Source: Mycobacterium barrassiae
GTDB lineage: Bacteria; Actinomycetota; Actinomycetes; Mycobacteriales; Mycobacteriaceae
Direction: 5' to 3'
NCBI RefSeq assembly: GCF_025822765.1
Contig: NZ_JACKUK010000025.1
Span: forward strand, 187,084-251,083
Length of the DNA: 64,000 bases
Shown: positions 30,010 through 46,055 of the stretch, piece by piece
Position numbering within the stretch: the first letter of the stretch is position 1
Layout: the number at the start of each line of letters is the position of its first letter
Program-made: the position numbers and the translations under genes
The notes under the pieces: generated by a model
The model's input: only the letters and a program-made list of their open reading frames with translations
Told to the model about the DNA's origin: nothing
The model's database searches: none

Positions 30010-30020
30010 AAGCTGACCGC

Positions 30021-30770: not shown

Positions 30771-30816
30771 AAACGCTTCATGTTTAGTGGGTTCGCGCTC
30801 GTGGTAGCCCACATTC

Positions 30817-31197
30817 ATGAACACAAATCTGACGAAGATGACGCCTTTCCTGTTCGCGGGCGCTGTGGCCGCTGCGATCGCCGCCGCGCCCCTCGCCGGT
30901 GCTCAGCCGGCGCCGCCTCCGCCGTGTGTCAACGCTGACGGATCGCCGTGCGGCTCACTGGGCAACGTGAACGCCGGTCCCGGTGGCGGTGCCGAGGTGA
31001 ACATTCCCGGCGGCCCCGTTGGTACGGCTGACGGCGGCGGTGCCTCCGGTGTGATCCCCAATGGTCCTGGTGGCTCGGCGGGCCCGGGCGGTGCCAGCGG
31101 CTCGCTGTCGCCCGTCGGACCCGGCGGTTCGGCAGGCCCGGGTGGGGCCAGCGGGTGTCTCCCGAACGTCGGGTGCATCAACATCCCTGCCCCGTAA
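30817..31197 (+). CDS. Secreted Gly/Pro-rich repeat protein
   Basis: A 126-residue precursor with a signal peptide cleaved near LAGAQ. The mature chain is low complexity: PAPPPPC, then Gly/Asn-rich turns, and two copies of GPGGSAGPGGASG. Four cysteines are placed as two pairs near the two ends (PPC/SPC and SGC/VGC). No enzymatic motif is visible; an extracellular structural role is only a guess. It is followed by the 53-bp palindrome copy A and a strong terminator. Confidence 0.82.
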   Translation: MNTNLTKMTPFLFAGAVAAAIAAAPLAGAQPAPPPPCVNADGSPCGSLGNVNAGPGGGAEVNIPGGPVGTADGGGASGVIPNGPGGSAGPGGASGSLSPVGPGGSAGPGGASGCLPNVGCINIPAP

Positions 31198-31210
31198 CCC
31201 TGCATAACTT

Positions 31211-31263
31211 GCGATTTCGGCGTGTTAGGTCTCGCTGAGCGCGACTAAGCACGCCGAAATCGC
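31211..31263 (+). repeat. 53-bp dispersed palindromic repeat, copy A
   Basis: The arms GCGATTTCGGCGTG (31211-31224) and CACGCCGAAATCGC (31250-31263) are perfect inverted repeats. The core GTCTCGCTGAGCG is shared with copies at 32191 and 37433 in the same orientation. The stem can extend 2 bp further out. It lies after the secreted protein gene and 100 bp before the XRE gene. Confidence 0.9.
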
Positions 31264-31270
31264 AAATTCG

Positions 31271-31315
31271 CGTCGCGGCGTACGTCCACTTCGGGCGTAC
31301 GCCGCGGCGTTTTTT
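31271..31315 (+). terminator. Rho-independent terminator
   Basis: Arms at 31271-31284 (CGTCGCGGCGTACG) and 31296-31309 (CGTACGCCGCGGCG) pair with one mismatch around an 11-nt loop, followed directly by six Ts. This is the best canonical terminator in the window; it ends transcription from the secreted-protein gene. Confidence 0.88.
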
Positions 31316-31326
31316 GTTGGATTCAC

Positions 31327-31362
31327 TTGACAAGTCGTTGGGTTTTCACAACAGTATGTTGT
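31327..31362 (+). promoter_or_regulatory. Promoter/operator of the XRE cassette
   Basis: TTGACA (31327-31332) is a good -35 element. ACAAC-agtat-GTTGT (31348-31362) is a perfect inverted repeat covering the expected -10/start region and touching the ATG at 31363. This placement suggests autorepression by the XRE protein. Confidence 0.55.
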
Positions 31363-31665
31363 ATGAGTCCGGTGAGGCGAGGCGCAGCCCTCCCCATTCA
31401 CAACCGCATCGCCGTCCTGCGCGCGGAGCGGCAGATGAGCCGGGCGCAGCTCGCGGAGTTGGTGGACGTCAACCCGCAGACCGTCGGGGCGCTGGAACGA
31501 GGCGATCACTTTCCGAGCCTCGATCTGGCGTTTCGGATCTGCGATGTCTTCGGCCTGCCCGTGGAGGCGGTGTTTTCGCGCACGCCGTTTGCGCCCCTGT
31601 CCACCGAGCTCTACCGAAAGCCCACAAGCCAAGGAGGCGACGACGATGTCCCGCTCGCACAGTGA
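31363..31665 (+). CDS. XRE-family helix-turn-helix regulator
   Basis: A 100-residue protein whose core (IHNRIAVLRAERQMSRAQLA, then NPQTVGALERGDHFPSLDLA) is a Cro/C1-type DNA-binding domain, followed by PVEAVFSRTPF typical of small HTH regulators paired with membrane proteins. The ATG at 31363 abuts a palindromic operator. It overlaps the next gene by 20 bp, within which the AAGGAGG for that gene sits. The pair is bracketed by two copies of the 53-bp palindrome. Confidence 0.88.
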   Translation: MSPVRRGAALPIHNRIAVLRAERQMSRAQLAELVDVNPQTVGALERGDHFPSLDLAFRICDVFGLPVEAVFSRTPFAPLSTELYRKPTSQGGDDDVPLAQ

Positions 31666-32185
31666 TTCGACGCTCATCGACCGGTACCAGAACTACCGGA
31701 CCCGCCGATTCCTGAAGTACGAACGCACGTATTCCCATTCGCTACCGCGCTGGCGCACGCAACGTCGCCGTCGCGCCCTGGTGGTCGGGCTGGTGGTCAC
31801 GTTCACGTTGATGGCCGTCGTAAGTGTGATGTGCGCCTTCGGAATTCAATGGGCACCGTTGCTGTGGCTGCCCGCGTCTCTGGTGTTCTTCGTTCTGTGG
31901 ATCGTGCTGCAGGTCGTGTCCGGCAGGCAGGGCGACGCGCCCGAGGCGGCCCTCGACGAGTACGAGGTGCAGCAGCGCAACACTGCCCGATCGATCGGCC
32001 TCACGGTCACCCAGTACTTGATGCTCGTACCGATCGGCTATCTGATTTTCGGATCTGTCATCACCGGGGGCACCGATGTGGACATGGCGTACGCCGGCGG
32101 CCTGATGGTGACGACGGTGTTGGTGTTCGGCGGCTGCCTGCCCGCGATGATCCTGGGTTGGATCCGGCCGGACCCGGACGCCTAA
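31646..32185 (+). CDS. Membrane protein partner of the XRE regulator
   Basis: A 179-residue protein. A very basic, Tyr-rich head (about 45 residues with RYQNYRTRRFLKYER) precedes four hydrophobic segments in two hairpins. AAGGAGG sits 8 nt before the ATG. The pairing of a small XRE regulator with a four-span membrane protein is common in bacteria, and the membrane partner may control the regulator, but no function is established for this one. Confidence 0.85.
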   Translation: MSRSHSDSTLIDRYQNYRTRRFLKYERTYSHSLPRWRTQRRRRALVVGLVVTFTLMAVVSVMCAFGIQWAPLLWLPASLVFFVLWIVLQVVSGRQGDAPEAALDEYEVQQRNTARSIGLTVTQYLMLVPIGYLIFGSVITGGTDVDMAYAGGLMVTTVLVFGGCLPAMILGWIRPDPDA

Positions 32186-32190
32186 AGCCT

Positions 32191-32243
32191 GCGATTTCGG
32201 CGTGTTGAGTCTCGCTGAGCGTGACTTAGCACGCCGAAATCGC
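32191..32243 (+). repeat. 53-bp dispersed palindromic repeat, copy B
   Basis: It has the same perfect 14-bp arms as copy A (32191-32204 and 32230-32243) and nearly the same core. It fills the gap between the membrane gene (stop 32185) and the convergent pgi (stop 32251), so it may serve as a two-way transcript end. Confidence 0.9.
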
Positions 32244-32250
32244 TGTTTCG

Positions 32251-33918
32251 CTAGGCCGAGCGGCCGCGCTCGACGCGATAGTGCCGGACCAGGGCGTCGG
32301 TCGAGGAATCCGACTGTTCGGCGGGCGAGCCGTCGGCGGTGATCACCGGCAGCAGCGCCTTGGCCTGCGTCTTGCCGAGTTCGACGCCCCACTGGTCGAA
32401 CGAGTCGATACCCCAGACGACGCCTTCGGTGAACACCTGATGCTCGTAGAGTGCGATCAGCTGGCCCAGCGCCGACGGGGTCAGCTTGGTGGCCAGGATC
32501 GACGTGCTGGGCCGGTTGCCCGGCATCACCTTGTGCGGCACGACATCCGGCGGCGTGCCCTCGGCGGCGATCTCCTCGGCGGTCTTGCCGAACGCCAACA
32601 CCTGCGTCTGGGCGAAGAAGTTGCTCATCAACAGGTCGTGCATGCTGCCCGTACCGTCGGCGGTCGGCAGGTCGTCGGTCGGCTGCGAGAACCCGATGAA
32701 GTCGGCGGGTACCAGCCGCGTGCCCTGATGCAGCAGTTGATAGAAAGCGTGCTGACCGTTGGTTCCCGGTTCGCCCCAAAAGATTTCGCCGGTGCTCGTC
32801 GTCACCGGTGACCCGTCCGCACGCACCGACTTGCCGTTGGACTCCATGGTCAGCTGCTGCAGATAGGCCGCGAAACGCGACAGATCATTCGAATACGGCA
32901 GCACCGCACGGGTTTCCGCGCCGAAGAACTCGTTGTACCAGAGACCGATGAGGCCGAGCAGCGCCGGCGCGTTGGCCTCCAGCGGCGCGGTGCGGAAGTG
33001 TTCGTCGACGATGTGAAACCCGGACAGGAACTCAGCGAACCGCTCGCGGCCGATGACCGCCATCACGCTCAAACCGATTGCGCTGTCGACGGAGTAGCGG
33101 CCGCCGACCCAGTCCCAGAAGCCGAACATGTTGTCGGTGTTGATGCCGAAGTCGTCGACCAACTTCTTGTTTGTTGACACCGCCACGAAGTGATTCGACA
33201 CCGCGGCATCGCCGAGCGCATCGGTGAGCCAGCGGCGCGCCGCCGTCGCATTGGTCAGTGTCTCCAGCGTCGAGAACGTCTTGGACGCGATGATGAAAAG
33301 CGTTGTCGCGGGGTCGAGTCCGTCGAGCTTGGCCACCAGGTCGGCGGGGTCGACATTGGACACGAACCGTGCCGAGATGCCGGCGTCCGCGTAGTGGCGT
33401 AGGCCGAGGGTGACCATCGCGGGGCCGAGATCCGAGCCGCCGATTCCGATGTTGACGACCGTGGTGATGCGTTCCCCGGTGGCGCCGGTCCATTCGCCGC
33501 TGCGCAGCCGATCGGTGAAGTCGCCCATTTTGTCGAGCACTTCGTGCACGTCGGCGGCGACGTCCTGCCCGTCGACCGTCAGCTCGGCGCCGCGCGGCAG
33601 CCGCAGCGCAGTGTGCAGCACCGCCCGGTCTTCGGAGGTGTTGATGTGCACACCGGAGAACATCGCGTCGCGGCGCTGCTCCAGGCCCGCCGCGCGAGCG
33701 AGGTCCACCAGCAACGACAGGGTCTCGCGGGTGACGCGGTGCTTGCTGTAGTCGATGTACAGATCGCCGACCGTGAGCGCCAGTTCCGTCCCGCGGGCGG
33801 GATCTTCGGCGAACAGTTCACGCAGCGACTTGTCGCCGATATCGTCATGATGCCGTTGCAGGGCCTGCCATGCGGCAGTGGTGGTGATGTCGGGAATCTG
33901 CGAGGTGTCGGCGGTCAT
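32251..33918 (-). CDS. pgi: Glucose-6-phosphate isomerase
   Basis: A 555-residue cytoplasmic PGI starting [17 protein letters not shown]. The phosphate-binding [11 protein letters not shown], the [12 protein letters not shown] loop and the signature [10 protein letters not shown] with catalytic Lys are all present. It interconverts glucose-6-phosphate and fructose-6-phosphate, the point where the polyol locus at 1-10 kb would join central metabolism. The frame is open further upstream, but the chosen ATG at 33918 gives the family length and leaves a 49-bp divergent promoter region to the aldehyde dehydrogenase gene. Confidence 0.97.
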
Positions 33919-33967
33919 GTAGCCGACACTAATGCGGCTCAATGGCCAAAGGAGTAATGAAGTAGTT

Positions 33968-35416
33968 ATGGATACCGCCAAGCTGCTGTCGTCTGTGCCC
34001 ACCGGTCTGTGGATCGGGGGCGAGGAGCGCCAGGGTTCGTCGACGTTCGACGTGCTCGACCCCTCTGATGACAAGGTTCTGATTTCGGTCGCGAACGCCA
34101 CGGCCGAGGATGCCGTCGCCGCGCTGGACGCCGCCTGCGCGGTGCAGGCCGACTGGGCCGCCACCCCGGCGCGTGAGCGCGGCGAGATTCTGCGTTCGGT
34201 GTTCGAGACGATCACCGCCCGCGCCGAAGACCTCGCCACCTTGATGACCCTCGAGATGGGCAAGGTGCTGCCGGAGAGCATGGGAGAGGTCAAGTACGGC
34301 GCCGAGTTCTTCCGGTGGTTCGCCGAGGAGGCGGTGCGCATCGCGGGCCGGTTCACCCCGAGCCCGGCGGGTACCGGACGCATCCTCGTCACCAAGCAGC
34401 CGGTCGGGCCGTGTTACGCGATCACACCGTGGAACTTCCCGCTGGCCATGGGCACCCGCAAGATCGGCCCGGCGTTCGCCGCGGGCTGCACGATGATCGT
34501 CAAGCCGGCCCAGGAGACGCCGCTGACGATGCTGCTGCTGGCCAAGCTGATGGACGAGGCGGGCCTGCCCAAGGGTGTGCTGTCGGTGCTGCCGACCAGC
34601 AGCCCCGGCCCGGTCACCGAGGCGCTGATCAACGACGGCCGGCTGCGCAAGCTGACGTTCACCGGATCCACCGGCGTCGGCAAGGCGTTGGTGAAGCAGT
34701 CGGCGGACAAACTGTTGCGCACCTCGATGGAGCTCGGTGGCAATGCACCGTTCATCGTGTTCGACGACGCCGATGTCGATGCCGCCGTCGACGGCGCGAT
34801 CCTCGCCAAGATGCGCAACGGCGGTGAGGCGTGCACGGCGGCCAACCGCTTCCACGTCGCCAACGCGGTGCGCGAGGAGTTCACCGAGAAGCTCGTGAAG
34901 CGGATGAGCGAGTTCACCCTCGGCAAGGGCCTCGACGAGAAGTCGACGCTGGGCCCGCTGATCAACGCCAAGCAGGTCGCCACGGTCACCGAGCTGGTCT
35001 CCGACGCGGTGTCGCGCGGCGCCACCGTCGCCGTGGGTGGGGTCGCTCCCGGCGGCCCGGGCAACTTCTATCCCGCCACCGTGCTCGCCGACGTGCCCGC
35101 CGACGCCCGCATCCTCAAGGAGGAGGTGTTCGGCCCCGTCGCGCCGATCACCGGCTTCGACACCGAGGAACAGGGCATCGCGGCGGCCAACGACACCGAA
35201 TACGGGCTGGCGGCCTACGTCTACACCCAGTCGCTGGACCGCGCGCTCCGCGTGGCCGAAGCCATCCAATCCGGGATGGTCGGCATCAATCGCGGTGTCA
35301 TCTCCGACCCTGCCGCCCCGTTCGGCGGCGTCAAGGAATCCGGCTTCGGGCGTGAGGGCGGCATCGAAGGCATCGAGGAATACCTCGATACGAAATACAT
35401 CGCGCTGACGAAGTAG
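33968..35416 (+). CDS. NAD(P)-dependent aldehyde dehydrogenase (succinate-semialdehyde type)
   Basis: A 482-residue class I ALDH. It has the cofactor motif TPWNFPLAM, catalytic Glu in MELGGNAPF and nucleophilic Cys in [10 protein letters not shown]. The GEACTAANR form and the overall length fit succinate-semialdehyde dehydrogenases (GabD). The ATG at 33968 has AAAGGAG 13 nt upstream; a nearer ATG at 33957 opens only Met-Lys-stop. A large stem-loop follows the stop. Aldehyde specificity is inferred from family resemblance. Confidence 0.93.
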
Positions 35417-35425
35417 GTCACTTGT

Positions 35426-35487
35426 CGCGAACAGACGCGAAAACCCCCCAATTCTCGGCGTGTCGGGGGTTTTCGCGTCTGCTCGCG
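35426..35487 (+). terminator. 23-bp-arm stem-loop after the aldehyde dehydrogenase gene
   Basis: The arm at 35426-35448 (CGCGAaCAGACGCG then AAAACCCCC) is complementary to 35465-35487 with one mismatch, around a 16-nt loop. It starts 10 bp past the stop and runs to just before the chosen acyltransferase start. Likely a transcript end; possibly another dispersed palindrome type, but only one copy is in the window. Confidence 0.75.
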
Positions 35488-35504
35488 CGGGAAAAATCGC
35501 GGCA

Positions 35505-37436
35505 GTGCGCACCGCTGAAAGCCGTCGGGGCATTCCCGCGTTGGACGGCATCAGGGCCGTCGCGGTTGCGCTCGTGCTCGCCGACCACGGCGGCATCCCG
35601 GGAGTGCCCGGCGGGTTCCTCGGCGTCGACGTGTTCTTCGTCCTCAGCGGGTTCCTGATCACCTCGCTGCTGCTGGACGAACACCGCACCACCGGGCGCG
35701 TCGGGCTGACCGCGTTCTGGATCCGGCGCGCCCGTCGCCTGCTGCCCGCACTGCTCGTGATGGTGCTGGCCGTGGTGGCCGCGCGCGAGTTGTTCTCGCC
35801 CGAATCCACGGCGTCCCTGCGCGACGACGCCGTCGCCGCGTTCTTCTGGGTTTCGAACTGGGCCTTCGTCGCGCAGCGGACCGACTACTTCGCGCAGGGC
35901 GCGCCGCCGTCGCCGCTTCAGCACACCTGGTCGCTCGGCGTCGAGGAGCAGTACTACGTGCTGTGGCCGTTGCTGCTCATCGCCGTCGCCGCATTCTTCT
36001 GGGCACAGATGCGACTGGCGGTCTTCCTGCTGGCGACCGCCGGCGTCATCGCGTCGGCAACGGCGTCCATCGTGCTCACCACCGACACGACGCTGAACCG
36101 CATCTACTTCGGCACCGACTCGCGGGCGCAGGCGCTCCTCGTCGGTGCGGCCGCGGCGGCGCTTCTGGTGCGCGACTGGTCGGTGCTCAACGACCGCGGC
36201 ACGCTGATCCGGACGCGCTGGGGTCACATCGTCGCGCGGATCGTCCCGTTCGTCGGCGTCGCGGTGCTGGCGGCCGCGGCGCACTACGCGACGGGCAGCG
36301 TCGGCGACTTCCGTCACGGCCTGCTGATCGTGGTCGCGATCGGGGCGGTCCTCGTCATCGCGCCGGTGGCGCTGGAGCAGGAGGGGCCCGTCGCCCGCGT
36401 CCTCGCCTGGCGGCCGCTCGTTGCGCTCGGCACCATCTCCTACGGCGTGTACCTCTGGCACTGGCCGGTCTTCCTGGCCCTCAATGGGCAGCGCACGGGA
36501 TGGACGGGCTGGCCGCTGTTCGTGGCGCGCTGCGCGGTGACGGTCGCACTGGCCGCGGCGTCGTGGTGGCTGGTGGAGCAGCCGATCCGGCGCTGGCGCC
36601 CGGTGTTCGTGCCGATGCTGCCGCTGGCGGGTGCGACGGCCGCCACTGCGGCGGTCGTGACGATGACGGTGCTTCCGGTGGGCGTGAAGTCCGAGGTGCC
36701 GCTGGGTCCGTCGATCGATTCCGCCGCGCTGGTGGCCCCCGAGATACCCGTCGAAGTTCGCAGACCGACAGCGCGCGAGCCCGGTACCCGGACCGTCGCG
36801 GTGTTCGGCGACTCGATCGCGTGGACGCTGATGCGCTACCTGCCGCCGACGCCGGGGCTCGCGTTCACCAACTACACGACGATCGGCTGCGGTATCGCCC
36901 GCGGCGGGCCCTACCGCTACGTCGGTCAGACCCTGAACCAGAAGCCGGAGTGCGACGCGTGGCCGAGCCGGTGGTCACAGCGCATCAACCACGACCGGCC
37001 GGATGTGGTGCTGTTGATCGTCGGCCGCTGGGAGGTCGTCGACCGGATGAGCGAGGGCCGGTGGACGAATATCACCGAGTCCGGCTACGAGGACTATCTG
37101 CGCGTCGAACTCAACCGTGCGCTGGACATTCTCGGCTCGACCGGCGCGGAGATCGTCGTCACCACCGAGCCCTACAACCGGCGGGCGGAAAAGCCGGACG
37201 GCAGCCTGTATCCCGAAGACGACCCCGACCGTGTCGACGAGTGGAACGCGTTGCTGCGCAGCGTCGTCAAGAAGCGCCCGAACGTCACCCTGCTCGATCT
37301 GAACGACAAGCTGGGGCCCAACGGGGTGTACACCAACTGGGTCGACGGCATCCGCATGCGCAGCGACGGCGTGCATCCGACACCGCAGGCCGTGGAATGG
37401 TTGACGCCGTGGCTGACCGACGCGCTCCGTGAGTGA
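35505..37436 (+). CDS. Acyltransferase-3/SGNH membrane protein (OafA-like)
   Basis: A 643-residue protein. An N-terminal acyltransferase_3 domain has about ten spans, starting RGIPALDGIRAVAVALVLADHGG with the FFVLSGFLI motif. A C-terminal SGNH domain has the Ser nucleophile in VFGDSIAW and the Asp-x-x-His in SDGVHPT. Such two-domain proteins O-acetylate or succinylate cell-envelope glycans or lipids. The GTG at 35505 is chosen because the earlier GTG at 35460 lies inside the stem-loop at 35426-35487. Its TGA is inside copy C of the 53-bp repeat. Confidence 0.93.
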   Translation: MRTAESRRGIPALDGIRAVAVALVLADHGGIPGVPGGFLGVDVFFVLSGFLITSLLLDEHRTTGRVGLTAFWIRRARRLLPALLVMVLAVVAARELFSPESTASLRDDAVAAFFWVSNWAFVAQRTDYFAQGAPPSPLQHTWSLGVEEQYYVLWPLLLIAVAAFFWAQMRLAVFLLATAGVIASATASIVLTTDTTLNRIYFGTDSRAQALLVGAAAAALLVRDWSVLNDRGTLIRTRWGHIVARIVPFVGVAVLAAAAHYATGSVGDFRHGLLIVVAIGAVLVIAPVALEQEGPVARVLAWRPLVALGTISYGVYLWHWPVFLALNGQRTGWTGWPLFVARCAVTVALAAASWWLVEQPIRRWRPVFVPMLPLAGATAATAAVVTMTVLPVGVKSEVPLGPSIDSAALVAPEIPVEVRRPTAREPGTRTVAVFGDSIAWTLMRYLPPTPGLAFTNYTTIGCGIARGGPYRYVGQTLNQKPECDAWPSRWSQRINHDRPDVVLLIVGRWEVVDRMSEGRWTNITESGYEDYLRVELNRALDILGSTGAEIVVTTEPYNRRAEKPDGSLYPEDDPDRVDEWNALLRSVVKKRPNVTLLDLNDKLGPNGVYTNWVDGIRMRSDGVHPTPQAVEWLTPWLTDALRE

Positions 37437-37485
37437 TTTCGGCGTGCGCAGTCTCGCTAAGCGTGACCCAGCACGCCCAAATCGC
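37433..37485 (+). repeat. 53-bp dispersed palindromic repeat, copy C
   Basis: This is a more diverged copy: arms GTGATTTCGGCGTG (37433-37446) and CACGCCCAAATCGC (37472-37485), with the conserved GTCTCGCT core and the same 53-bp length and orientation. It overlaps the acyltransferase stop codon and fills the gap to the convergent chorismate mutase gene (stop at 37497). Confidence 0.88.
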
Positions 37486-37496
37486 AGAGGTGGCGG

Positions 37497-37760
37497 CTAG
37501 TGGCCGAGGCGACCGCGGCCCAGGCGCAGCAGCAGCATCGCCAGGTCTTTGCCGTCGGGTCCGAGTTCGCTGTAGCGCTCGATGACCTTCATTTCACGGC
37601 TGTGCACCAGGCGGGTACCGCCGGACGCCATCCTGGCCTTGCCGATGAGCTTGGACACCTCGGTGCGGCGCTTCACCGCTTCGAGGATCGCCGCGTCCAG
37701 CTGGTCGATCTCTTGACGCAGCTCGTCGATGGTTTGCAAGTGTTCAGCTTCGATCGTCAT
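37497..37760 (-). CDS. aroQ: Intracellular chorismate mutase
   Basis: An 87-residue AroQ-delta chorismate mutase, nearly identical in its last 40 residues to Rv0948c: KARMASGGTRLVHSREMKV, then ERYSELGPDGKDL and the ending GRGRLGH. In the family this C-terminus docks onto DAHP synthase, which raises activity and brings feedback control by aromatic amino acids. The active-site Arg residues (RQEIDQLDAAILEAVKRR, GTRLVHSREM) are present. AGAAGG lies upstream of the ATG. A leader peptide rich in Phe/Tyr and mutually exclusive hairpins precede it. Confidence 0.95.
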   Translation of the reverse strand: MTIEAEHLQTIDELRQEIDQLDAAILEAVKRRTEVSKLIGKARMASGGTRLVHSREMKVIERYSELGPDGKDLAMLLLRLGRGRLGH

Positions 37761-37772
37761 AGTCGTGTCTCG

Positions 37773-37856
37773 CCTTCTCTTGTGTGGGTATCCGGTCCGT
37801 CCGGATGCGGGCCTCACACAAGAGACGAGCCCCGGATCCGGAAGGGACCGGGGCTC
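37773..37856 (-). promoter_or_regulatory. Candidate attenuator RNA of the chorismate mutase gene
   Basis: In transcript order there is first a 9-bp hairpin (37848-37856 with 37827-37835). A second, perfect 11-bp hairpin follows (37815-37825 with 37776-37786), whose 3' arm overlaps the presumed Shine-Dalgarno AGAAGG (37773-37778). The 15 nt at 37827-37841 can instead pair with 37801-37815 at 13 of 15 positions, which would compete with both hairpins. There is no T-run, so translational or Rho-linked control is as likely as intrinsic termination. Confidence 0.6.
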
Positions 37857-37866
37857 TGCTGAGCAG

Positions 37867-37926
37867 CTAGACCACGGGCACCGCCGGCGGAGACCCGTAG
37901 AAAAATCGTCCTTGCTGCATGAGCAT
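37867..37926 (-). CDS. Phe/Tyr leader peptide
   Basis: A short frame reads MQQGRFFYGSPPAVPVV from the ATG at 37920, or two residues longer (Met-Leu first) from 37926. The consecutive Phe-Phe-Tyr codons at 37897-37905 sit upstream of chorismate mutase, the entry step to Phe and Tyr. The stop is 10 nt before the first hairpin of the leader. TAGATG at 37940-37945 is a plausible -10 box. No strong Shine-Dalgarno is seen, so initiation may be leaderless. Confidence 0.65.
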   Translation of the reverse strand: MLMQQGRFFYGSPPAVPVV

Positions 37927-37997
37927 GTAAAGAGTGTGCCATCTAGGGCCACGCCCGCGCAAAGATGTCGCTGGACAGCGGTAAGTTCAGTGATGAC

Positions 37998-40298
37998 ATG
38001 TCTGTATCTTCCGCGACCAACGAGACCGATCAGTTGCTCGACGGGCTGAATCCCCAGCAGCGCCAGGCCGTGCTGCACGAGGGTTCGCCGCTGCTCATCG
38101 TCGCTGGCGCGGGGTCGGGCAAGACGGCCGTGCTGACCCGCCGGATCGCTTATCTGCTTGCCGCTCGCGAGGTGGGCGTCGGGCAGGTACTGGCCATCAC
38201 GTTCACCAACAAAGCCGCCGCCGAGATGCGCGAGCGGGTGGTCGGATTGGTGGGGCCCCGGGCCAGGAACATGTGGATTTCCACCTTCCATTCCTCGTGT
38301 GTGCGGATCCTGCGCAACCAGGCGTCCCTTATCAAGGGCCTCAACTCGAACTTCTCGATCTACGACGCTGACGACTCGCGTCGGTTGCTGCTGATGATCG
38401 GCAAGGACATGGGCCTGGACACCAAGCGTTACTCGCCGCGTTTGCTGGCCAACGGCATCTCGAACCACAAGAACGAGCTGATCGGACCCGAGCAGGCCGC
38501 GGCCGAGGCGTCGGAGGCGGGCGAGGACCTGCCCCGCATCATCGCCGAGGTGTACGGCGAGTACCAGCGACGGCTACGTGCGGCCAACGCGCTCGACTTC
38601 GACGACCTCATCGGTGAGACGGTCGCGGTGCTGCAGGCCTTCCCGCAGATCGCGCAGTACTACCGGCGGCGGTTCCGGCACATCCTGGTCGACGAATACC
38701 AGGACACCAACCACGCGCAGTACGTCCTCGTGCGTGAGCTCGTGGGCCGGGAGACCGAAGACGGGGTGCCTCCGGCCGAGCTGTGCGTCGTCGGCGACGC
38801 CGACCAGTCGATCTACGCCTTCCGCGGCGCCACCATCCGCAACATCGAGGACTTCGAGCGCGACTTCCCGAACGCCACAACGATTCTGCTCGAGCAGAAC
38901 TACCGCTCGACGCAGAACATCCTGTCGGCCGCGAACTCGGTGATCTCACGGAACGCCGGTCGCCGCGAGAAGCGGCTGTGGACCGATTCCGGCGAGGGTG
39001 AGCTGATCGTCGGCTACGTCGCAGACAACGAGCACGACGAGGCGCGCTTCGTCGCCGGGGAGATCGACGCCCTGGCCGACCGGGGCGAGATCAACTACAA
39101 CGACGTCGCGGTCTTCTATCGCACCAACAACTCGTCGCGCGCCCTCGAGGAAGTGTTCATCCGCGCCGGCATTCCCTACAAAGTCGTTGGGGGAGTTCGC
39201 TTTTACGAGCGCAGGGAAATCCGCGACATCGTCGCCTACCTTCGCGTGCTGGACAATCCCGGCGACTCGGTCAGCATGCGGCGCATCCTGAACACCCCGC
39301 GTCGCGGTATCGGCGACCGCGCCGAGGCGTGCGTGGCGGTGTACGCCGAGAACACCGGCGGCAGTTTCAACGACGCGCTGCAGGCGGCCGCCGAGGGCAA
39401 GGTGCCGATGCTGAACACCCGCTCGGAGAAGGCCATCGCGGGTTTCGTCGCCATGCTCGACGAACTGCGCGGAGGCCTCGACGGGGAGCTGGGCGAGCTC
39501 GTCGAAGCGGTGCTCGACCGCACCGGATACCGCACCGAGCTGGAGTCCTCGAGCGATCCGCAGGATCTTGCGCGGTTGGACAACCTCAACGAATTGGTCA
39601 GCGTCGCACACGAATTCAGCACCGATCTGGCCAACGCCGAGGCGCTGGGTGAAATCGAGGACGAGGATGTCCCCGACACCGGGGTGCTTGCCAAGTTCCT
39701 GGAGCGGGTGTCGCTGGTCGCCGACGCCGACGAGCTCCCCGAGCACGGCGCCGGTGTGGTGACCATGATGACGTTGCACACCGCCAAGGGGCTGGAGTTT
39801 CCCGTCGTGTTCGTGACCGGCTGGGAGGACGGCATGTTCCCGCACATGCGGGCGCTGGGCGATCCGACCGAACTGTCCGAGGAGCGTCGCCTGGCCTATG
39901 TCGGCATCACCCGCGCGCGTCAGCGGCTCTACGTCAGCCGGGCCAAGGTCCGCTCGTCGTGGGGGCAGCCGATGCTCAATCCGGAATCGCGCTTCCTCAA
40001 AGAGATTCCGCAGCATCTCATCGACTGGCGCCGTCCGGATCCGGGTCCGTCAATGCCCGCGCCGGTCAGTGGGGCGGGTCGATTCGGCACGCCGCGCCCA
40101 TCGCCCACCCGCTCGGGTGCCGGAAAGCGTCCGCTGCTGGTGCTCGAGCCCGGCGACCGGGTCAACCACGACAAGTACGGTCTCGGCCGCGTCGAGGAGG
40201 TCTCCGGCGTCGGCGAATCGGCGATGTCGCTCATCGACTTCGGCAGCGCGGGTCGGGTCAAGCTGATGCACAACCACGCCCCGGTGTCCAAGCTTTGA
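37998..40298 (+). CDS. uvrD1: ATP-dependent DNA helicase UvrD1/PcrA
   Basis: A 766-residue superfamily 1A helicase: Walker A AGAGSGKTAVLTRR, FTNKAAAEM, motif II VDEYQDTNHAQ, QNYRST and motif VI VAYVGITRARQRLY. A C-terminal Tudor-like domain (GDRVNHDKYGLGRVEEV) is present, as in PcrA/UvrD1, where it contacts RNA polymerase or Ku. M. tuberculosis UvrD1 unwinds DNA in nucleotide excision repair and is activated by Ku. The ATG at 37998 (MSVSSATNETDQLL) aligns with the homologue start; 37965 is an in-frame alternative. Confidence 0.96.
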   Translation: MSVSSATNETDQLLDGLNPQQRQAVLHEGSPLLIVAGAGSGKTAVLTRRIAYLLAAREVGVGQVLAITFTNKAAAEMRERVVGLVGPRARNMWISTFHSSCVRILRNQASLIKGLNSNFSIYDADDSRRLLLMIGKDMGLDTKRYSPRLLANGISNHKNELIGPEQAAAEASEAGEDLPRIIAEVYGEYQRRLRAANALDFDDLIGETVAVLQAFPQIAQYYRRRFRHILVDEYQDTNHAQYVLVRELVGRETEDGVPPAELCVVGDADQSIYAFRGATIRNIEDFERDFPNATTILLEQNYRSTQNILSAANSVISRNAGRREKRLWTDSGEGELIVGYVADNEHDEARFVAGEIDALADRGEINYNDVAVFYRTNNSSRALEEVFIRAGIPYKVVGGVRFYERREIRDIVAYLRVLDNPGDSVSMRRILNTPRRGIGDRAEACVAVYAENTGGSFNDALQAAAEGKVPMLNTRSEKAIAGFVAMLDELRGGLDGELGELVEAVLDRTGYRTELESSSDPQDLARLDNLNELVSVAHEFSTDLANAEALGEIEDEDVPDTGVLAKFLERVSLVADADELPEHGAGVVTMMTLHTAKGLEFPVVFVTGWEDGMFPHMRALGDPTELSEERRLAYVGITRARQRLYVSRAKVRSSWGQPMLNPESRFLKEIPQHLIDWRRPDPGPSMPAPVSGAGRFGTPRPSPTRSGAGKRPLLVLEPGDRVNHDKYGLGRVEEVSGVGESAMSLIDFGSAGRVKLMHNHAPVSKL

Positions 40299-40299
40299 T

Positions 40300-40356
40300 C
40301 GCTATCCGCTTTTTGCAGACCCCCACTCGCACTTCCTCTGCACTTCGCGGATAGCG
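40300..40356 (+). repeat. 57-bp dispersed palindromic repeat, copy 2 (3' of uvrD1)
   Basis: Terminal inverted repeat CGCTATCCGC (40300-40309) / GCGGATAGCG (40347-40356) is perfect, with an inner TGCAGA/TCTGCA stem. It begins 2 bp after the uvrD1 stop, in the same orientation relative to its gene as copy 1 has to mku. It lies between uvrD1 and a convergent membrane-protein gene. Confidence 0.88.
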
Positions 40357-40365
40357 TTGCGCTGC

Positions 40366-40965
40366 TTACGGTCTGGCCCACCGTCCCGTGGCGGGCAGCA
40401 GCGCCGACACGATGGTGGCCAGCGGTAGCACCGGGATCGCGTAGACGACCGGCGGCAGTTTGGCGCCGGCCACGAACAGACTCGAGAAGATCAGCAGCGC
40501 GACGACGGCGCCGACGATGATCAGCAGGCGACTCACGCGGCGGCGCAGCAGCAGCCCGATCAACCCCGCGATGAGGGCGGCCGCGGAGATCGCGGTCAGA
40601 AACGCGACGGCGACACAGAACAACATGTCGGACTCCCACCAACCGGTGATCAGGTCGGTGGCGATGACCGCGGTCGCCCAGCCGCTGAGGATGCTGAGGA
40701 CGGCGGTCGCGATCGCGGTCCGCGGATTGGGCCACGGCGTCTTGGGGACGACGGCCGACGGCCTGGCGCGTGGAATGTAATCCCCCTGCCCTTCGGGCGG
40801 GAGGTGCCCCCACGTCTGCGGGTCTGCGCCCTCGGCGATCGGGAACTCGCCGGTGGGATGGCGACGGATGATCGACGTCTGCGGCTCCGCGGCGGCGGGG
40901 ATTTCACCCGTGGGGTGCCGACGGATTATGCGAGCGGAGCTGGGTTCGTCGTCGTCGCTGGCCAC
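40366..40965 (-). CDS. Membrane protein with IIRRHPTGE repeats
   Basis: A 199-residue protein. The cytoplasmic head contains two copies of IIRRHPTGE(I/F)P about 20 residues apart. Four hydrophobic spans follow from about residue 85. The start is a GTG (MASDDDEPSS), 9 bp after the stop of the M23 gene upstream, so both may be co-transcribed. Function unknown; the repeated basic motif could be a docking site. Confidence 0.85.
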   Translation of the reverse strand: MASDDDEPSSARIIRRHPTGEIPAAAEPQTSIIRRHPTGEFPIAEGADPQTWGHLPPEGQGDYIPRARPSAVVPKTPWPNPRTAIATAVLSILSGWATAVIATDLITGWWESDMLFCVAVAFLTAISAAALIAGLIGLLLRRRVSRLLIIVGAVVALLIFSSLFVAGAKLPPVVYAIPVLPLATIVSALLPATGRWARP

Positions 40966-40974
40966 TCAGCCAGA

Positions 40975-42030
40975 CTAATTGGACGGCGAGAGTCCGCGTT
41001 TTGCGAGCCAGCCGACGGGGTCCACCCGGTCGGTGCCGTTGAGGAGCACCTCGAAGTGCAGATGCGGGCCCGTGGAGTTACCGGTGTTGCCCATCTTGGC
41101 GATCTGGTCGCCGGCCCACACGCGCTGCCCGATCTCGACATTCCATGCGCTGAGATGGCCGTACAACGTGACGGTGCCATCGGAGTGCCGAAGCTTGACC
41201 CAGTTCCCGTAGCCGCCCGTCGGTCCTACGTCGATGACGACGCCGTCGGAAGCCGCGAGGATCGGGGTGCCGATCGAGTTGGCGATGTCGATGCCGCCGT
41301 GCAGCACGCCCCAGCGGTATCCGAAGCCAGACGTCCAGGCGCCCTTGGTGGGCATCACGAACATGGGTCGCTGCAGCCGCGCCTCGCGCTCGGCGCGCTC
41401 CTGTGCGAACGCGGCGGCCTTGGTGACCTCTTCGGCGTGCACGGCCGAGTTGGCGGTGGAGGACACGCTCACGATCTGCATGCCGTCGGTCGAACCGACG
41501 ATCGCGCCGCCGCCCATCACGTCCTGATCCGCCGCCAGGACGGTGCTCGGAGCTTCCTTGGACGAGTTGGCCATCGTGTACGCGCCCGCGGCGGTTGCTC
41601 CGACCGCCATGGCGGCGACCATCAACCGGCCCCTGATGGGCACTTCCTGCTTGCGGTGTGCACCACCGCGGCCGGCGATGGCGATGACGTCGGTCGCGGC
41701 GACGCCGTCGCTGACGTCGGTGTGGCTGTCGCGGTAGGCGTGAGACGACCGGCGTTCGTCGCGTGCAACGCGGCGAAACTCGGACGGCACGGCCAGTGGA
41801 AGCGGTAGCTGGTCGTCTGTGTCGTTCAGGTCGTCGAGCTCGGGTGCGCGGTTGATCCGCGCCTCGCGATCGAAGGCACTGTTCTCGTAGAAGTCGAGGT
41901 CAGTGAGGTCGCCGAATTCGTTGAACGGAATGATGTCGGTGACTTCGGCAGCCTGCTCAGGGATGCGGCCGGTGGTTTGCCGTTTCGTCGCTAGTCCTCT
42001 CGGAGACCGGGACGAACGGTGCTGGGCCAA
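40975..42030 (-). CDS. M23 (LytM-type) peptidase-domain envelope protein
   Basis: A 351-residue protein corresponding to Rv0950c. An acidic/polar cytoplasmic head of about 130 residues leads to one membrane span (RLMVAAMAVGATAAGAY). The C-terminal LytM domain (about 240-345) has zinc ligands HGGID and HLHFEV. It probably cleaves or helps cleave peptidoglycan cross-links outside the membrane. The start is TTG (TTGGCCCAGCAC) with GAGGGA about 10 nt upstream. The 274-bp region to sucC is shared and divergent, with a CRP-like site. Confidence 0.9.
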   Translation of the reverse strand: MAQHRSSRSPRGLATKRQTTGRIPEQAAEVTDIIPFNEFGDLTDLDFYENSAFDREARINRAPELDDLNDTDDQLPLPLAVPSEFRRVARDERRSSHAYRDSHTDVSDGVAATDVIAIAGRGGAHRKQEVPIRGRLMVAAMAVGATAAGAYTMANSSKEAPSTVLAADQDVMGGGAIVGSTDGMQIVSVSSTANSAVHAEEVTKAAAFAQERAEREARLQRPMFVMPTKGAWTSGFGYRWGVLHGGIDIANSIGTPILAASDGVVIDVGPTGGYGNWVKLRHSDGTVTLYGHLSAWNVEIGQRVWAGDQIAKMGNTGNSTGPHLHFEVLLNGTDRVDPVGWLAKRGLSPSN

Positions 42031-42137
42031 CCTGGAATTCCCTCTGCTCGTGATCAGTTCGTTATCTACCTAGACCACAGGCACGTTAACCAAATCCCAA
42101 TGTTGGTGGCAACCCAAGGGAGTATTCCGCCGATTAA

Positions 42138-42153
42138 TGTGACGTGTATCACC
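42138..42153. promoter_or_regulatory. CRP-like binding site between the M23 gene and sucC
   Basis: TGTGACGTGTATCACC matches the mycobacterial CRP consensus TGTGAnnnnnnTCACA at nine of ten fixed positions (last base C). It is 108 bp from the M23 start and about 150 bp from the sucC start, so it could affect either gene. Confidence 0.6.
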
Positions 42154-42304
42154 TAGGCCATGCGGTGAGATCCACCACATGACAGGTGGGCGGTTCAGAG
42201 GTCTCGACCCCGTGTGGATAAAGTTCCCCCGAGCCCGCCAGGGGTAAACCTTCGACCTCATGCTCGACTGACACGCTTCACAGACAAGGGATGTTCCAGA
42301 GCCC

Positions 42305-43468
<1,164 letters not shown>

Positions 43469-43480
43469 GGGACGCAAGCT

Positions 43481-44383
43481 ATGTCGATTTTTCTGAACAA
43501 GGACTCCAAGGTCATCGTCCAGGGCATCACCGGCGGTGAGGGCACCAAGCACACCGCGCTGATGCTCAAGGCTGGCACGCAGCTGGTCGGTGGCGTCAAC
43601 GCGCGCAAGGCCGGAACGACCGTGTCGCACAAGGACAAAGACGGTAACGACGTCGAGCTGCCGGTGTTCGGCACCGTCGCCGAGGCCATCAAGGAGACGG
43701 GCGCCGACGTGTCGGTCGTCTTCGTGCCGCCGAAGTTCGCCAAGGACGCGATCATCGAGGCCATCGACGCCGAGATTCCGCTGCTGGTGGTCATCACCGA
43801 GGGAATTCCGGTGCAGGACAGCGCATATGCGTGGGCCTATAACGTCGAGAAGGGCCAGAAGACCCGCATCATCGGCCCGAACTGCCCCGGCATCATCACG
43901 CCTGGCGAGGCGCTGGCGGGTATCACGCCGGCCAACATCACCGGCTCCGGTCCGGTCGGCCTGGTGTCGAAGTCGGGCACGCTGACCTACCAGATGATGT
44001 TCGAGTTGCGCGACTTCGGCTTCTCTACGGCCATCGGCATCGGCGGTGACCCGGTCATCGGCACCACCCACATCGATGCCATCGAGGCGTTCGAGAAGGA
44101 TCCCGAGACCAAGATCATCGTGATGATCGGCGAGATCGGCGGCGACGCCGAGGAGCGGGCGGCCGACTACATCAAGGCCAACGTCTCCAAGCCGGTCGTC
44201 GGCTACGTCGCGGGCTTCACCGCGCCGGAGGGCAAGACGATGGGCCACGCGGGTGCGATCGTGTCGGGTTCGTCGGGCACCGCCGCCGCGAAGAAGGAAG
44301 CGCTGGAGGCCGCCGGCGTCAAGGTCGGTAAGACCCCGTCGGAGACCGCCAACCTGGCGCGGGAGATCCTGCAGAGCCTCTAA
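43481..44383 (+). CDS. sucD: Succinyl-CoA synthetase alpha subunit
   Basis: A 300-residue subunit with an N-terminal CoA-binding Rossmann domain ([11 protein letters not shown]), the [12 protein letters not shown] loop and the phosphorylated active-site His in [10 protein letters not shown]. It forms the alpha-beta pair with SucC. A long perfect hairpin follows 8 bp after the stop, ending the operon. Confidence 0.97.
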
Positions 44384-44391
44384 GGCCTCAT

Positions 44392-44429
44392 CGAAACTGT
44401 CCCCTACCTCCAGGTAGGGGACAGTTTCG
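44392..44429. terminator. 38-bp perfect palindrome after sucD
   Basis: CGAAACTGTCCCCTACCT (44392-44409) and its exact complement (44412-44429) leave a 2-nt centre. It begins 8 bp past the sucD stop. Both the lack of a T-run and the near-zero loop are unlike a textbook terminator; it may be another mobile palindrome serving as a transcript end. Confidence 0.7.
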
Positions 44430-44460
44430 CGTTCGGGGGCGTGACGTGCGCCGCAGAATT

Positions 44461-44474
44461 AGGAACACGTTCTA
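44461..44474. promoter_or_regulatory. KstR-like operator upstream of the thiolase-like gene
   Basis: AGGAACACGTTCTA fits TnnAACnnGTTnnA at seven of eight fixed positions (first base A instead of T). It is 45 bp before the ATG of the thiolase-like gene. Confidence 0.55.
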
Positions 44475-44519
44475 ACAATCCGTTAGCCTGACGAATTAAC
44501 ACGTGTCAGGAGGTCTGTA

Positions 44520-46055
44520 ATGGCAGTCGATCCGCGTACGCCGGTGTTGGTCGGTGTCGGCCAGTTCACCGAGCGCATCGACGACCCCTCCTATCGGGGC
44601 ATGTCGTCCGTGGAGTTGGCGACGGCGGCGGCGGAGGCCGCGCTAGCCGACACCGGCGTGGATTCGGCCGCCGTTGCGGGTGCGATCGAGGTGTTCGCCG
44701 GACTGCGGCAGTTCGAGATCTGCACGCCCTACACCAAGCCGCCGCTCGGCTGCTCCGACAACTATTTGCGGTCGGTGGCGCGCCGGATCGGGGCCGACCC
44801 GAAGCGTGCCGTGCTGGAACCCATCGGCGGCAACGGCCCGCAGAAGCTGGTGACGGAATTCGCCGGGGCGATCGCCGCAGGCGACGTCGAGGTCGCGTTG
44901 GTACTGGGTTCCGAGAACGGTTCCACGCTGCGGACTTTTGCGCGCCGCGATGACAAGCCAGACCACAGTGAGACCGTCGGCGGCCAGCTCGAGGACCGCG
45001 GCTACGGCTTCGAGCAGTACATGAGCGAATACACCGCGACCCACGGTCTCACCGGCGCCCCCGTCCAGTACGGGCTGTTGGACAATGCGCGCCGCGCGCG
45101 GCTGGGCCTCAGCGTCGAGGACTACCTTCGCAGCATGGCAGAGCTCTTCTCGCCGTTCTCCAAAGTTGCTGCCAAGAACCCGTTTTCGTCTTCACCGGTG
45201 GAGCGTTCGGTCGACGAGTTGATGACGGTCACCGACGAGAACCGGATGATCTGCGATCCGTATCCGCGCCTGATGGTGGCGCGCGATCAGGTGAACCAGG
45301 GTGCGGCCGTGCTGCTGATGTCGGTGTCGGCCGCGCGCCGGCTCGGTGTGGCCGAGGAGAAGTGGGTGTATCTGCACGGTCACGCGGATCAAACCGAGCA
45401 GGATCTCCTGAACCGCGTTGACCTCAGTGTGAGCATTTCGGCGAAACAGGCGGTGGCAGAGGCGCTTCGGGTGGCAGACATCGGTATCGACGATGTGGCG
45501 TCATTCGATCTCTACAGCTGCTTCCCGTTCCCCGTCTTCGCGGTGTGCGACGAGTTCGGCTTGGCGCCGAACGATCCGCGCGGAATGACGCTGACCGGCG
45601 GCCTGCCCTATTTCGGTGGCCCGGGCAACAGCTACTCCCTGCACGGTATCGGCGAGACGGTTGCCGAAATGCGGGACAAGCCAGGCACATTCGGTCTCGT
45701 CGGCGCCAACGGCGGAATCATGTCCAAGTACTCGGTAGGGGTGTACTCGACCGAACCACGCGACTGGGCCCCCGACCGCAGCAAGGAGCTGCAGGCCGAT
45801 ATCGCTGCGCTCCCCAAGGTCGCGGTGACCCGTAACGTCGAGGGGCGCGGCACCATCGAGACGTACTCGGTGCGCTACGACTGGCCCGTCCGAACCGGCG
45901 TCATCATCGGGCGCCTGGACGCCGACGGCAGCCGATTCATGGCGCTGACCACCGACGAGGAGTTGGTGGGGTTGATGAGCGACGGTGACCCGATCGGTGC
46001 GGCGATCTCCGTCACCTGCGACGGCAAGAAGAACACCGCCTCGCTCAGCGTTTAG
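44520..46055 (+). CDS. Thiolase-like protein (TLP1-type), probable non-classical thiolase
   Basis: A 511-residue thiolase-fold protein (MAVDPRTPVLVGVGQFTE, GANGGIMSKYSVGVYS) with an extra C-terminal domain of about 100 residues (RNVEGRGTIETYSV...). At the usual first nucleophile region it reads EPIGGNGPQKLVTEF, without Cys, and the HDAF-type motif is DLYSCFPF. This fits the thiolase-like proteins that lack classical thiolase activity. AGGAGG lies 6 nt before the ATG and a KstR-like site is upstream, so a part in steroid or fatty-acyl metabolism is inferred. It overlaps the convergent luciferase-like gene by 4 bp. Confidence 0.88.
   Translation: MAVDPRTPVLVGVGQFTERIDDPSYRGMSSVELATAAAEAALADTGVDSAAVAGAIEVFAGLRQFEICTPYTKPPLGCSDNYLRSVARRIGADPKRAVLEPIGGNGPQKLVTEFAGAIAAGDVEVALVLGSENGSTLRTFARRDDKPDHSETVGGQLEDRGYGFEQYMSEYTATHGLTGAPVQYGLLDNARRARLGLSVEDYLRSMAELFSPFSKVAAKNPFSSSPVERSVDELMTVTDENRMICDPYPRLMVARDQVNQGAAVLLMSVSAARRLGVAEEKWVYLHGHADQTEQDLLNRVDLSVSISAKQAVAEALRVADIGIDDVASFDLYSCFPFPVFAVCDEFGLAPNDPRGMTLTGGLPYFGGPGNSYSLHGIGETVAEMRDKPGTFGLVGANGGIMSKYSVGVYSTEPRDWAPDRSKELQADIAALPKVAVTRNVEGRGTIETYSVRYDWPVRTGVIIGRLDADGSRFMALTTDEELVGLMSDGDPIGAAISVTCDGKKNTASLSV

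What the first reader, a model, noticed from the sequence alone, without database searches (positions are those of the whole stretch)
37760..37926. Phe/Tyr leader-peptide attenuator in front of the intracellular chorismate mutase
On the minus strand, upstream of the 87-residue chorismate mutase, a short frame reads MQQGRFFYGSPPAVPVV with three consecutive Phe/Tyr codons. It is followed by two perfect hairpins (9 bp and 11 bp) and a 13-of-15-bp alternative pairing (37827-37841 with 37801-37815) that competes with both. The second hairpin overlaps the Shine-Dalgarno region. This is the layout of a ribosome-mediated attenuator sensing Phe/Tyr for a gene at the entry to Phe/Tyr synthesis. The direction of the switch cannot be settled by eye: a simple model would need the stalled ribosome to free the SD, and there is no T-run.
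Basis: partly seen in the sequence, partly recalled or inferred. Interest (0 to 1): 0.82.

Follow-up and report, generated by a model that had tools for sequence, protein, structure and literature searches.

The report
Ancient Phe/Tyr attenuator for chorismate mutase
A short peptide rich in phenylalanine and tyrosine codons, with RNA hairpins behind it, sits in front of the chorismate mutase gene in this mycobacterium and in many relatives, and probably lets the cell switch the gene up when these amino acids run short.

Summary
The leader ORF is two codons longer than stated (37926-37867, MLMQQGRFFYGSPPAVPVV). 199 of 225 genus loci keep 8 or more residues of RFFYGYRPAVPVV. This gives the classical layout: 1:2 = P1, 2:3 antiterminator (likely, not shown), 3:4 = A. 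P1 and A show compensatory changes. A covariance model matches 147 of 249 genomes of the order at E<=0.001; of 59 fetched loci 51 precede a chorismate mutase gene, 8 weak hits do not. A GGCACACT-like box 6-7 nt before the start in 159 of 175 leaders suggests a leaderless leader. Hairpin B over the SD is not a conserved switch. Predicted: stalling turns the gene on. In the window itself P1, 2:3 and the T tract are weak. No Rfam leader family and no printed report were found in my searches; no experiment was possible.

The parts
37933..37940 (-). GGCACACT, -10-like promoter box; its last T lies 6 nt before the leader start codon
   Evidence: spacing 6 nt in 118, 7 nt in 41, 3 nt in 3 of 175 distinct leaders (genus and a few family), no box found in 13; box, 6 nt and GTG kept in 7 loci where the leader is gone
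37867..37926 (-). leader ORF MLMQQGRFFYGSPPAVPVV, probably leaderless (predicted transcription start 37926)
   Evidence: conservation
37897..37905 (-). sensor codons Phe-Phe-Tyr (TTT TTC TAC); the usual second Tyr two codons on is Ser here
   Evidence: F 167, F 152, Y 151 and, two codons on, Y 160 of 168 distinct genus leaders scoring 8 or more
37873..37899 (-). hairpin P1 (regions 1:2) inside the ORF; imperfect in this genome (7 bp, internal loop, 3 bp; -14.0 kcal/mol)
   Evidence: in 79 sequences 94.6% of 790 cells pair and 7 of 10 pairs have changes on both sides
37872..37884 (-). region 2, 3' arm of P1 plus GG; proposed antiterminator partner of region 3
   Evidence: weak in this genome (-8.4 kcal/mol)
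37827..37856 (-). hairpin A (regions 3:4), terminator stem; arms 37856-37848 and 37835-37827
   Evidence: followed by T runs in related genera
37815..37826 (-). T-rich tract GTCTCTTGTGTG after A
   Evidence: mean 6.1 T of 12 over 151 genus leaders against 2.2 in background windows
37776..37825 (-). hairpin B (5:6), overlaps the SD; strong here, not conserved as a helix in the genus
37801..37841 (-). alternative 4:5 pairing, 37841-37827 with 37815-37801 (13 of 15)
   Evidence: RNAalifold forms a related pairing when region 3 is left out
37497..37760 (-). intracellular chorismate mutase (CM), 87 aa

Best explanation
This is a ribosome-mediated transcription attenuator that senses charged tRNA-Phe (and tRNA-Tyr) and controls chorismate mutase. 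RNA polymerase starts at the leader's own start codon and a ribosome follows it into the 19-codon leader. If Phe/Tyr are plentiful the ribosome reaches the stop codon; it then covers region 2 but ends just short of hairpin A, so A (3:4) forms and transcription ends at the T-rich tract: off. If charged Phe/Tyr-tRNA is short it stalls on FFY and covers the 5' arm of P1; region 2 is released, pairs with region 3 as it emerges, and keeps A from forming: on. Without a ribosome P1 and A both form: off. Shown by comparison: conserved leader, aromatic codons, P1, A, T-rich tract, promoter-box spacing, stop-to-A spacing, linkage to CM. Inferred: the transcription start, that the leader is translated, that 2:3 wins the race, that A terminates in mycobacteria, and the amino-acid response. 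In the window's lineage hairpin B may add occlusion of the SD.
For: (1) Leader kept in 199 of 225 genus loci and outside the genus. (2) Aromatic identity, not only bases, is kept: F-Y-Y (L317), F-Y-F (L329), Y-F (L364-L366, L373), F-Y (L112) in place of F-F. (3) P1: 35 cells and 7 of 10 pairs changed on both sides; 0 and 1 of 500 shuffles reach this. P1 is rewritten yet paired in L273 and L284. (4) P1+A on 56 sequences: 94.5% paired against 36.6-47.5% when slid. (5) A is followed by T runs in relatives, e.g. GGGGCTTTTTT in L271, L275, L320. (6) RNAalifold of 179 sequences: ribosome on FF and RNA ending before region 4 gives 2:3; ribosome at the stop gives A. (7) Swap test: native 2:3 partners fit better than exchanged ones (P 0.0075), as do 1:2 and 3:4 (0.0005); 1:3, 2:4, 1:4 do not. 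(8) A starts 9 nt or more after the stop in 154 of 155 leaders, median 11. (9) 51 of 59 examined loci precede a CM gene.
Against: 2:3 is no better than shuffles by duplex energy (median z -0.69, 155 leaders) and shows no significant covariation; in the swap test its effect is small (mean rank 0.44-0.46, chance 0.5) and relatedness is ignored. At equilibrium A wins even with the ribosome stalled, so 2:3 must act kinetically. Mycobacterial T tracts are broken: 12% of 151 have four T in a row. In the window P1 is imperfect and 2:3 weak. A home-made phylogenetic covariation test on the near-invariant genus alignment found nothing above its null. 17 of the 26 low-scoring genus loci have no model match, and over the family only 102 of 301 genomes have one. 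No expression data.
Confidence: 0.72

Rival explanations
1. Translational attenuation: stalling lets 4:5 form, which opens hairpin B and frees the Shine-Dalgarno of CM.
For: In the window B is an 11-bp helix overlapping the SD and 4:5 pairs 13 of 15; 4:5 is somewhat stronger than shuffles over 155 leaders (median z -1.99, 48% below -2). Translational attenuation of Cys genes in M. smegmatis is cited in PMC13236596 (the cited paper was not held).
Against: B is not longer than shuffles over 133 leaders (mean P 0.48); RBS opening energy does not depend on region 4 in 151 leaders and shows no clear trend with ribosome position in 70 (stop minus stalled median 0.36 kcal/mol; 29% above +1, 20% below -1); relatives carry a terminator with a T run.
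Confidence: 0.13
2. RFFYG is an arrest peptide: the nascent chain itself stalls the ribosome in response to a small molecule or drug, rather than tRNA charging.
For: The peptide is conserved beyond the aromatic codons, and the codon before FF is CGA in 165 of 168 genus leaders.
Against: The conserved tail is explained at base level by P1 and region 2: the last codon varies over Val, Ala, Gly and Glu but always begins with G in the listed codons. Outside the genus the Arg is replaced by Gln, Ser, Glu, Tyr or Gly and F/Y swap.
Confidence: 0.07
3. P1 is a DNA operator for a repressor and the reading frame is incidental.
For: P1 is a near-palindrome close to the promoter-like box.
Against: Its commonest form holds a G-U pair and changes compensate, some to G-U; residues and stop-to-A spacing are kept; P1 is largely rewritten in L273 and L284 while staying paired.
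Confidence: 0.03

Closest known systems
pheL-pheA attenuator of Escherichia coli (passages of PMC11802643; details otherwise recalled)
   Same: Leader peptide and Phe-tRNA control in front of a gene with chorismate mutase activity
   Different: There the gene is the bifunctional CM-prephenate dehydratase; here a separate small CM, an actinobacterium, a probably leaderless leader ORF, and in mycobacteria a degenerate T tract. Homology of the RNAs was not tested
aroR-aroF attenuator of Corynebacterium glutamicum (Neshat 2014, seen only as described in passages of PMC11802643 and PMC4046766)
   Same: Phe-Tyr-Phe leader that responds to Phe limitation; an actinobacterium of (recalled) the same order
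   Different: Controls a DAHP synthase, not CM; homology of the RNA was not tested.
ilvB1 transcription attenuator of M. tuberculosis (passages of PMC13236596)
   Same: Ribosome-controlled terminator in a mycobacterial biosynthetic leader
   Different: Branched-chain codons; described with a U tract
Cys-rich short ORFs of mycobacteria (first candidates in passages of PMC4633059; Canestrari 2020 seen only as cited in PMC13236596)
   Same: Leaderless leader ORF with clustered codons of the end product
   Different: Cysteine; cited as translation attenuation; details not seen

Membership tests
Ribosome-mediated amino-acid transcription attenuators (trp/phe/his type) | Leader ORF with clustered codons of the pathway's end product | tested here: met
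Ribosome-mediated amino-acid transcription attenuators (trp/phe/his type) | Hairpin 1:2 starting at the regulatory codons | tested here: met
   P1
Ribosome-mediated amino-acid transcription attenuators (trp/phe/his type) | Antiterminator 2:3 that excludes 1:2 and 3:4 | tested here: inconclusive
   for; against; weak in the window
Ribosome-mediated amino-acid transcription attenuators (trp/phe/his type) | Terminator hairpin 3:4 followed by a U tract | tested here: inconclusive
   met in related genera; in Mycobacterium the stem is met but the T tract is interrupted
Ribosome-mediated amino-acid transcription attenuators (trp/phe/his type) | Downstream gene belongs to the pathway of that amino acid | tested here: met
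   chorismate mutase
Ribosome-mediated amino-acid transcription attenuators (trp/phe/his type) | Read-through rises when the amino acid is short | not testable with these tools
   no expression data available
Translational attenuators (SD-sequestering) | Conserved hairpin occluding the SD, opened by ribosome position | tested here: not met
   not conserved in the genus; the window itself has such a hairpin
Known Rfam leader families | Match at the curated threshold | tested here: not met
   window 30000-45000: 0 matches; six relatives at E up to 0.5: two matches below their curated scores, suhB (E 0.0028, overlapping the leader of L335) and asX2, neither a leader family

The most novel reading that the evidence does not exclude
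The mycobacterial version is not an eroded terminator but a distinct one: the tract after A is kept position by position as GTCTCTTGTGTG (T at six set places in 88-99% of leaders), which suggests a ribosome-controlled terminator or pause site that needs no U run. In at least seven loci, perhaps two lineages, the leader was cut out exactly, so that chorismate mutase itself took over the leaderless start.
Probability: 0.25. Interest if true: 0.72.

Novelty: new member of a known kind. Interest (0 to 1): 0.6.

Why it matters
A 2005 survey of Actinobacteria reported no conserved RNA regulatory structures upstream of phenylalanine or tyrosine operons (PMC1262725, passages). This element seems to be one that reaches across the order and, in one fetched case, beyond it. 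It would control chorismate mutase, which the listed abstract of PMC7762937 calls an essential enzyme for Phe and Tyr synthesis. It would add a Phe/Tyr sensor to the few mycobacterial attenuators I found described in print, give a natural series (intact, rewritten, lost) for testing how such switches evolve, and offer a test of whether a mycobacterial terminator can work without a U run.

Tried and rejected
SD accessibility under different ribosome positions (70 leaders) and with region 4 free or hidden (151 leaders): no consistent effect, so SD control was dropped as the main mechanism. Home-made phylogenetic covariation test: every observed score lay below the mean null maximum (87 against 113); judged powerless on a near-invariant alignment and replaced by wider sampling. 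Duplex energies against shuffles: support 1:2 and 3:4, partly 4:5, not 2:3 or 5:6. A five-pair stem GCAGC/GCTGC around P1, suggested by RNAalifold, pairs in 126-149 of 178-179 sequences per pair and was not followed. Model hits: 8 of 59 examined loci were not upstream of CM (L367-L372, L375, L376; E 9e-8 to 4e-5); other hits of the same strength were (for example L335, L336, L373), so the tallies at E<=0.001 contain both. The loci fetched were chosen from the stronger hits and from different genera, not at random. Second copy in the window's genome: none (pattern; model, one match). Rows dropped before counts: 4 of 60 listed references left out of alignment A1 (L185, L126, L128, L216); the 8 misses and L360, L361, L363 left out of A2; L354 left out; 21 of 176 leaders without a recognisable A stem left out of the set of 155.

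Full report
What is there. On the minus strand a 19-codon ORF, 37926-37867, reads MLMQQGRFFYGSPPAVPVV and is followed by hairpin A (9 bp), hairpin B (11 bp, overlapping an SD-like AGAAGG) and the CM gene at 37760. The CM is confirmed by Pfam PF01817.

Conservation in the genus. 195 of 198 sampled genus genomes have the CM; the three without are 63-73% complete. I examined 225 genus loci (80 of them are named contigs taken with the genus, some species occur twice). Against RFFYGYRPAVPVV 199 score 8 or more of 13. The 26 low scorers were searched with the covariance model: 9 still carry the RNA (E 1.8e-6 or better: L182, L024, L105, L205, L185, L011, L088, L235, L191), 17 do not; 16 of the low scorers were read by eye, among them L235, which keeps A without the ORF. 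In 168 distinct leaders scoring 8 or more, the sensor positions are F 167, F 152, Y 151 and, two codons on, Y 160; the first Tyr is otherwise Cys, Asp, His and others. The window and its sister L002 have lost the last Tyr (Ser and Cys).

The bases around the sensor codons are conserved even at third positions because they fold: ACGGGTACCG...CGGTGCCCGT is a hairpin, P1, that begins in the Tyr codon. In 179 sequences (171 genus, 8 family) 97.0% of its cells pair, against 31-46% when slid. In a wider set of 79 sequences (aligned by MAFFT without the structure) 94.6% of 790 cells pair, 7 of 10 pairs change on both sides in 35 cells, and 1 and 0 of 500 shuffles reach these values; cells count sequences, not events. 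In L273 and L284 much of the stem is rewritten and still pairs. The window's own P1 is imperfect (7 bp, internal loop, 3 bp, -14.0 kcal/mol).

Hairpin A is a terminator in relatives. A stem of 14 pairs pairs in 93.2% of cells over 56 sequences, 4 of its pairs changing on both sides (helix 2). In related genera it is followed directly by a T run: GGGGCTTTTTT in L271 and L275, GGGGCTTTTT in L267 and L284, GGGGCTCATTTTTCTT in L164, and GGGGCGTTTTT or similar in order-level loci such as L317, L324 and L335. Four T in a row occur in 10 of 16 family and 15 of 40 order-or-wider sequences of alignment A2 (62.5% and 37.5%). Within Mycobacterium the tract is T-rich but interrupted: 6.1 T of 12 on average in 151 leaders against 2.2 in background windows, yet only 12% have four T in a row. 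So 'no T-run' is right in the letter, but a conserved T-rich tract is there.

Antiterminator. Regions 2 and 3 can pair. The ten proposed pairs form in 95.6% of cells in the 179 sequences (slid controls 37-58%) and in 90.4% in the 56 (slid 32-55%), there without significant covariation. RNAalifold, given the RNA from a ribosome stalled on FF up to just before region 4, forms 2:3; given the whole RNA without a ribosome it forms P1 (with an outer stem), A and B; with the ribosome at the stop it forms A and B; with the ribosome stalled and the full RNA it again forms A. Native 2:3 partners fit each other better than partners exchanged between species (interaction -0.58 kcal/mol, P 0.0075, 73 combinations), as do 1:2 and 3:4 (P 0.0005), while 1:3, 2:4 and 1:4 do not. 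That permutation ignores relatedness and the effect on rank is small (0.44-0.46). Against it stand the duplex test (median z -0.69) and the greater stability of A. I rate 2:3 as likely, not shown.

Geometry. The 5' arm of A begins 9 nt or more after the stop codon in 154 of 155 leaders, median 11. With the usual footprint (recalled: about 15 nt beyond the first base of the P site) a ribosome at the stop ends just before A and covers region 2, so A can form. A ribosome stalled on FF covers the 5' arm of P1 and frees region 2. Hence the direction: stalling on, completion off. For the order-level set the same count gave 41 of 48 (85%), with negative values that show frames mis-set there, so I do not lean on it.

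Promoter and leaderless start. A GGCACACT-like box (GGC[AG][CG]AC) stands 6 nt (118), 7 nt (41) or 3 nt (3) before the first in-frame ATG/GTG in 175 distinct leaders, with no box in 13. A at -11 and T at -7 of a start codon, the place of a -10 element (recalled) if transcription starts at the start codon, is met in 123 of 175. A natural experiment agrees: in 7 loci (L062, L174, L177, L178, L197, L201, L209) the leader is gone and a GTG that opens the CM frame lies exactly 6 nt after the box; L076, L119, L120 and L133, also without a leader, do not show this. No start-site map was available to me.

Hairpin B and the SD. B is strong in the window, but over 133 leaders the longest helix there is no longer than in shuffled sequence (mean P 0.48; 9% below 0.05). 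RBS opening energy is the same whether region 4 is free or held in A (151 leaders, median difference -0.03 kcal/mol, p 0.21), and shows no clear trend with ribosome position in 70 leaders. In 85 of 151 leaders an in-frame ATG lies in the loop of B. SD control can be real in the window's lineage but is not the conserved mechanism.

How far it reaches. A covariance model from 56 sequences matched, at E<=0.001, 102 of 301 genomes drawn over the family, 147 of 249 over the order and 25 of 246 over the class (13 of these are of the window's own genus and 3 of its family). I fetched 60 loci from these hits, chosen from stronger hits and different genera, and looked at 59: 46 precede a CM by tblastn, 4 by Pfam (L324, L326, L333, L334) and L350 by reading its ORF; 8 do not. 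L374, from another order of the class, is a true one. Aromatic runs there include FFYGN, FYYGY, FYFGY, FSYGH and FLYGS, so aromatic identity rather than a fixed U-rich string is kept. The window's genome has a single copy. A further search round a small-genome member of the genus gave 32 of 41.

Print. Searches for CM with leader peptide and attenuation, aromatic attenuators in Corynebacterium, mycobacterial uORFs and attenuation, Rv0948c and actinobacterial attenuation gave no report of this element. These are capped listings of open papers (for instance 20 of 501 shown, 20 of 27). Nine papers were opened, all as passages found by terms: PMC1262725, PMC11802643, PMC13236596, PMC9094748, PMC4633059, PMC6437058, PMC8079986, PMC4046766, PMC12125101. 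PMC1262725 states that no conserved RNA structures were seen before Phe or Tyr operons of Actinobacteria. PMC8079986 lists eight leader peptides of Streptomyces lividans, none for Phe or Tyr. Subscription papers and supplements could not be seen, so a report or table entry elsewhere remains possible.

Verdict. A real aromatic-codon leader of CM, conserved across the order and most simply read as a transcription attenuator; known kind, apparently new member.

Noticed in passing
L062, L174, L177, L178, L197, L201, L209: The leader is gone and chorismate mutase begins with GTG exactly 6 nt after the promoter-like box, i.e. it took over the leader's start and is probably leaderless.
   Followed up: partly
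window 37906-37908 and genus leaders: The Arg codon before FF is CGA in 165 of 168 distinct leaders; neither P1 nor the sensor explains this.
   Followed up: no
leaders of the genus and a few family members, loop of hairpin B: 85 of 151 leaders have an in-frame ATG, typically 25-26 nt after hairpin A, a possible cause of longer annotated CM starts.
   Followed up: no
L243:330-431: A single-contig genome of 3,268,203 bp, the recalled size of M. leprae, keeps the leader as RFFYGYGLTVPVV.
   Followed up: no
window 37926-37965: A divergent gene (ATG 37965, plus strand, 777 aa, UvrD/PcrA-like by recall, not searched) starts only 39 nt from the predicted leader start, so the two promoters share a very short region.
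   Followed up: no
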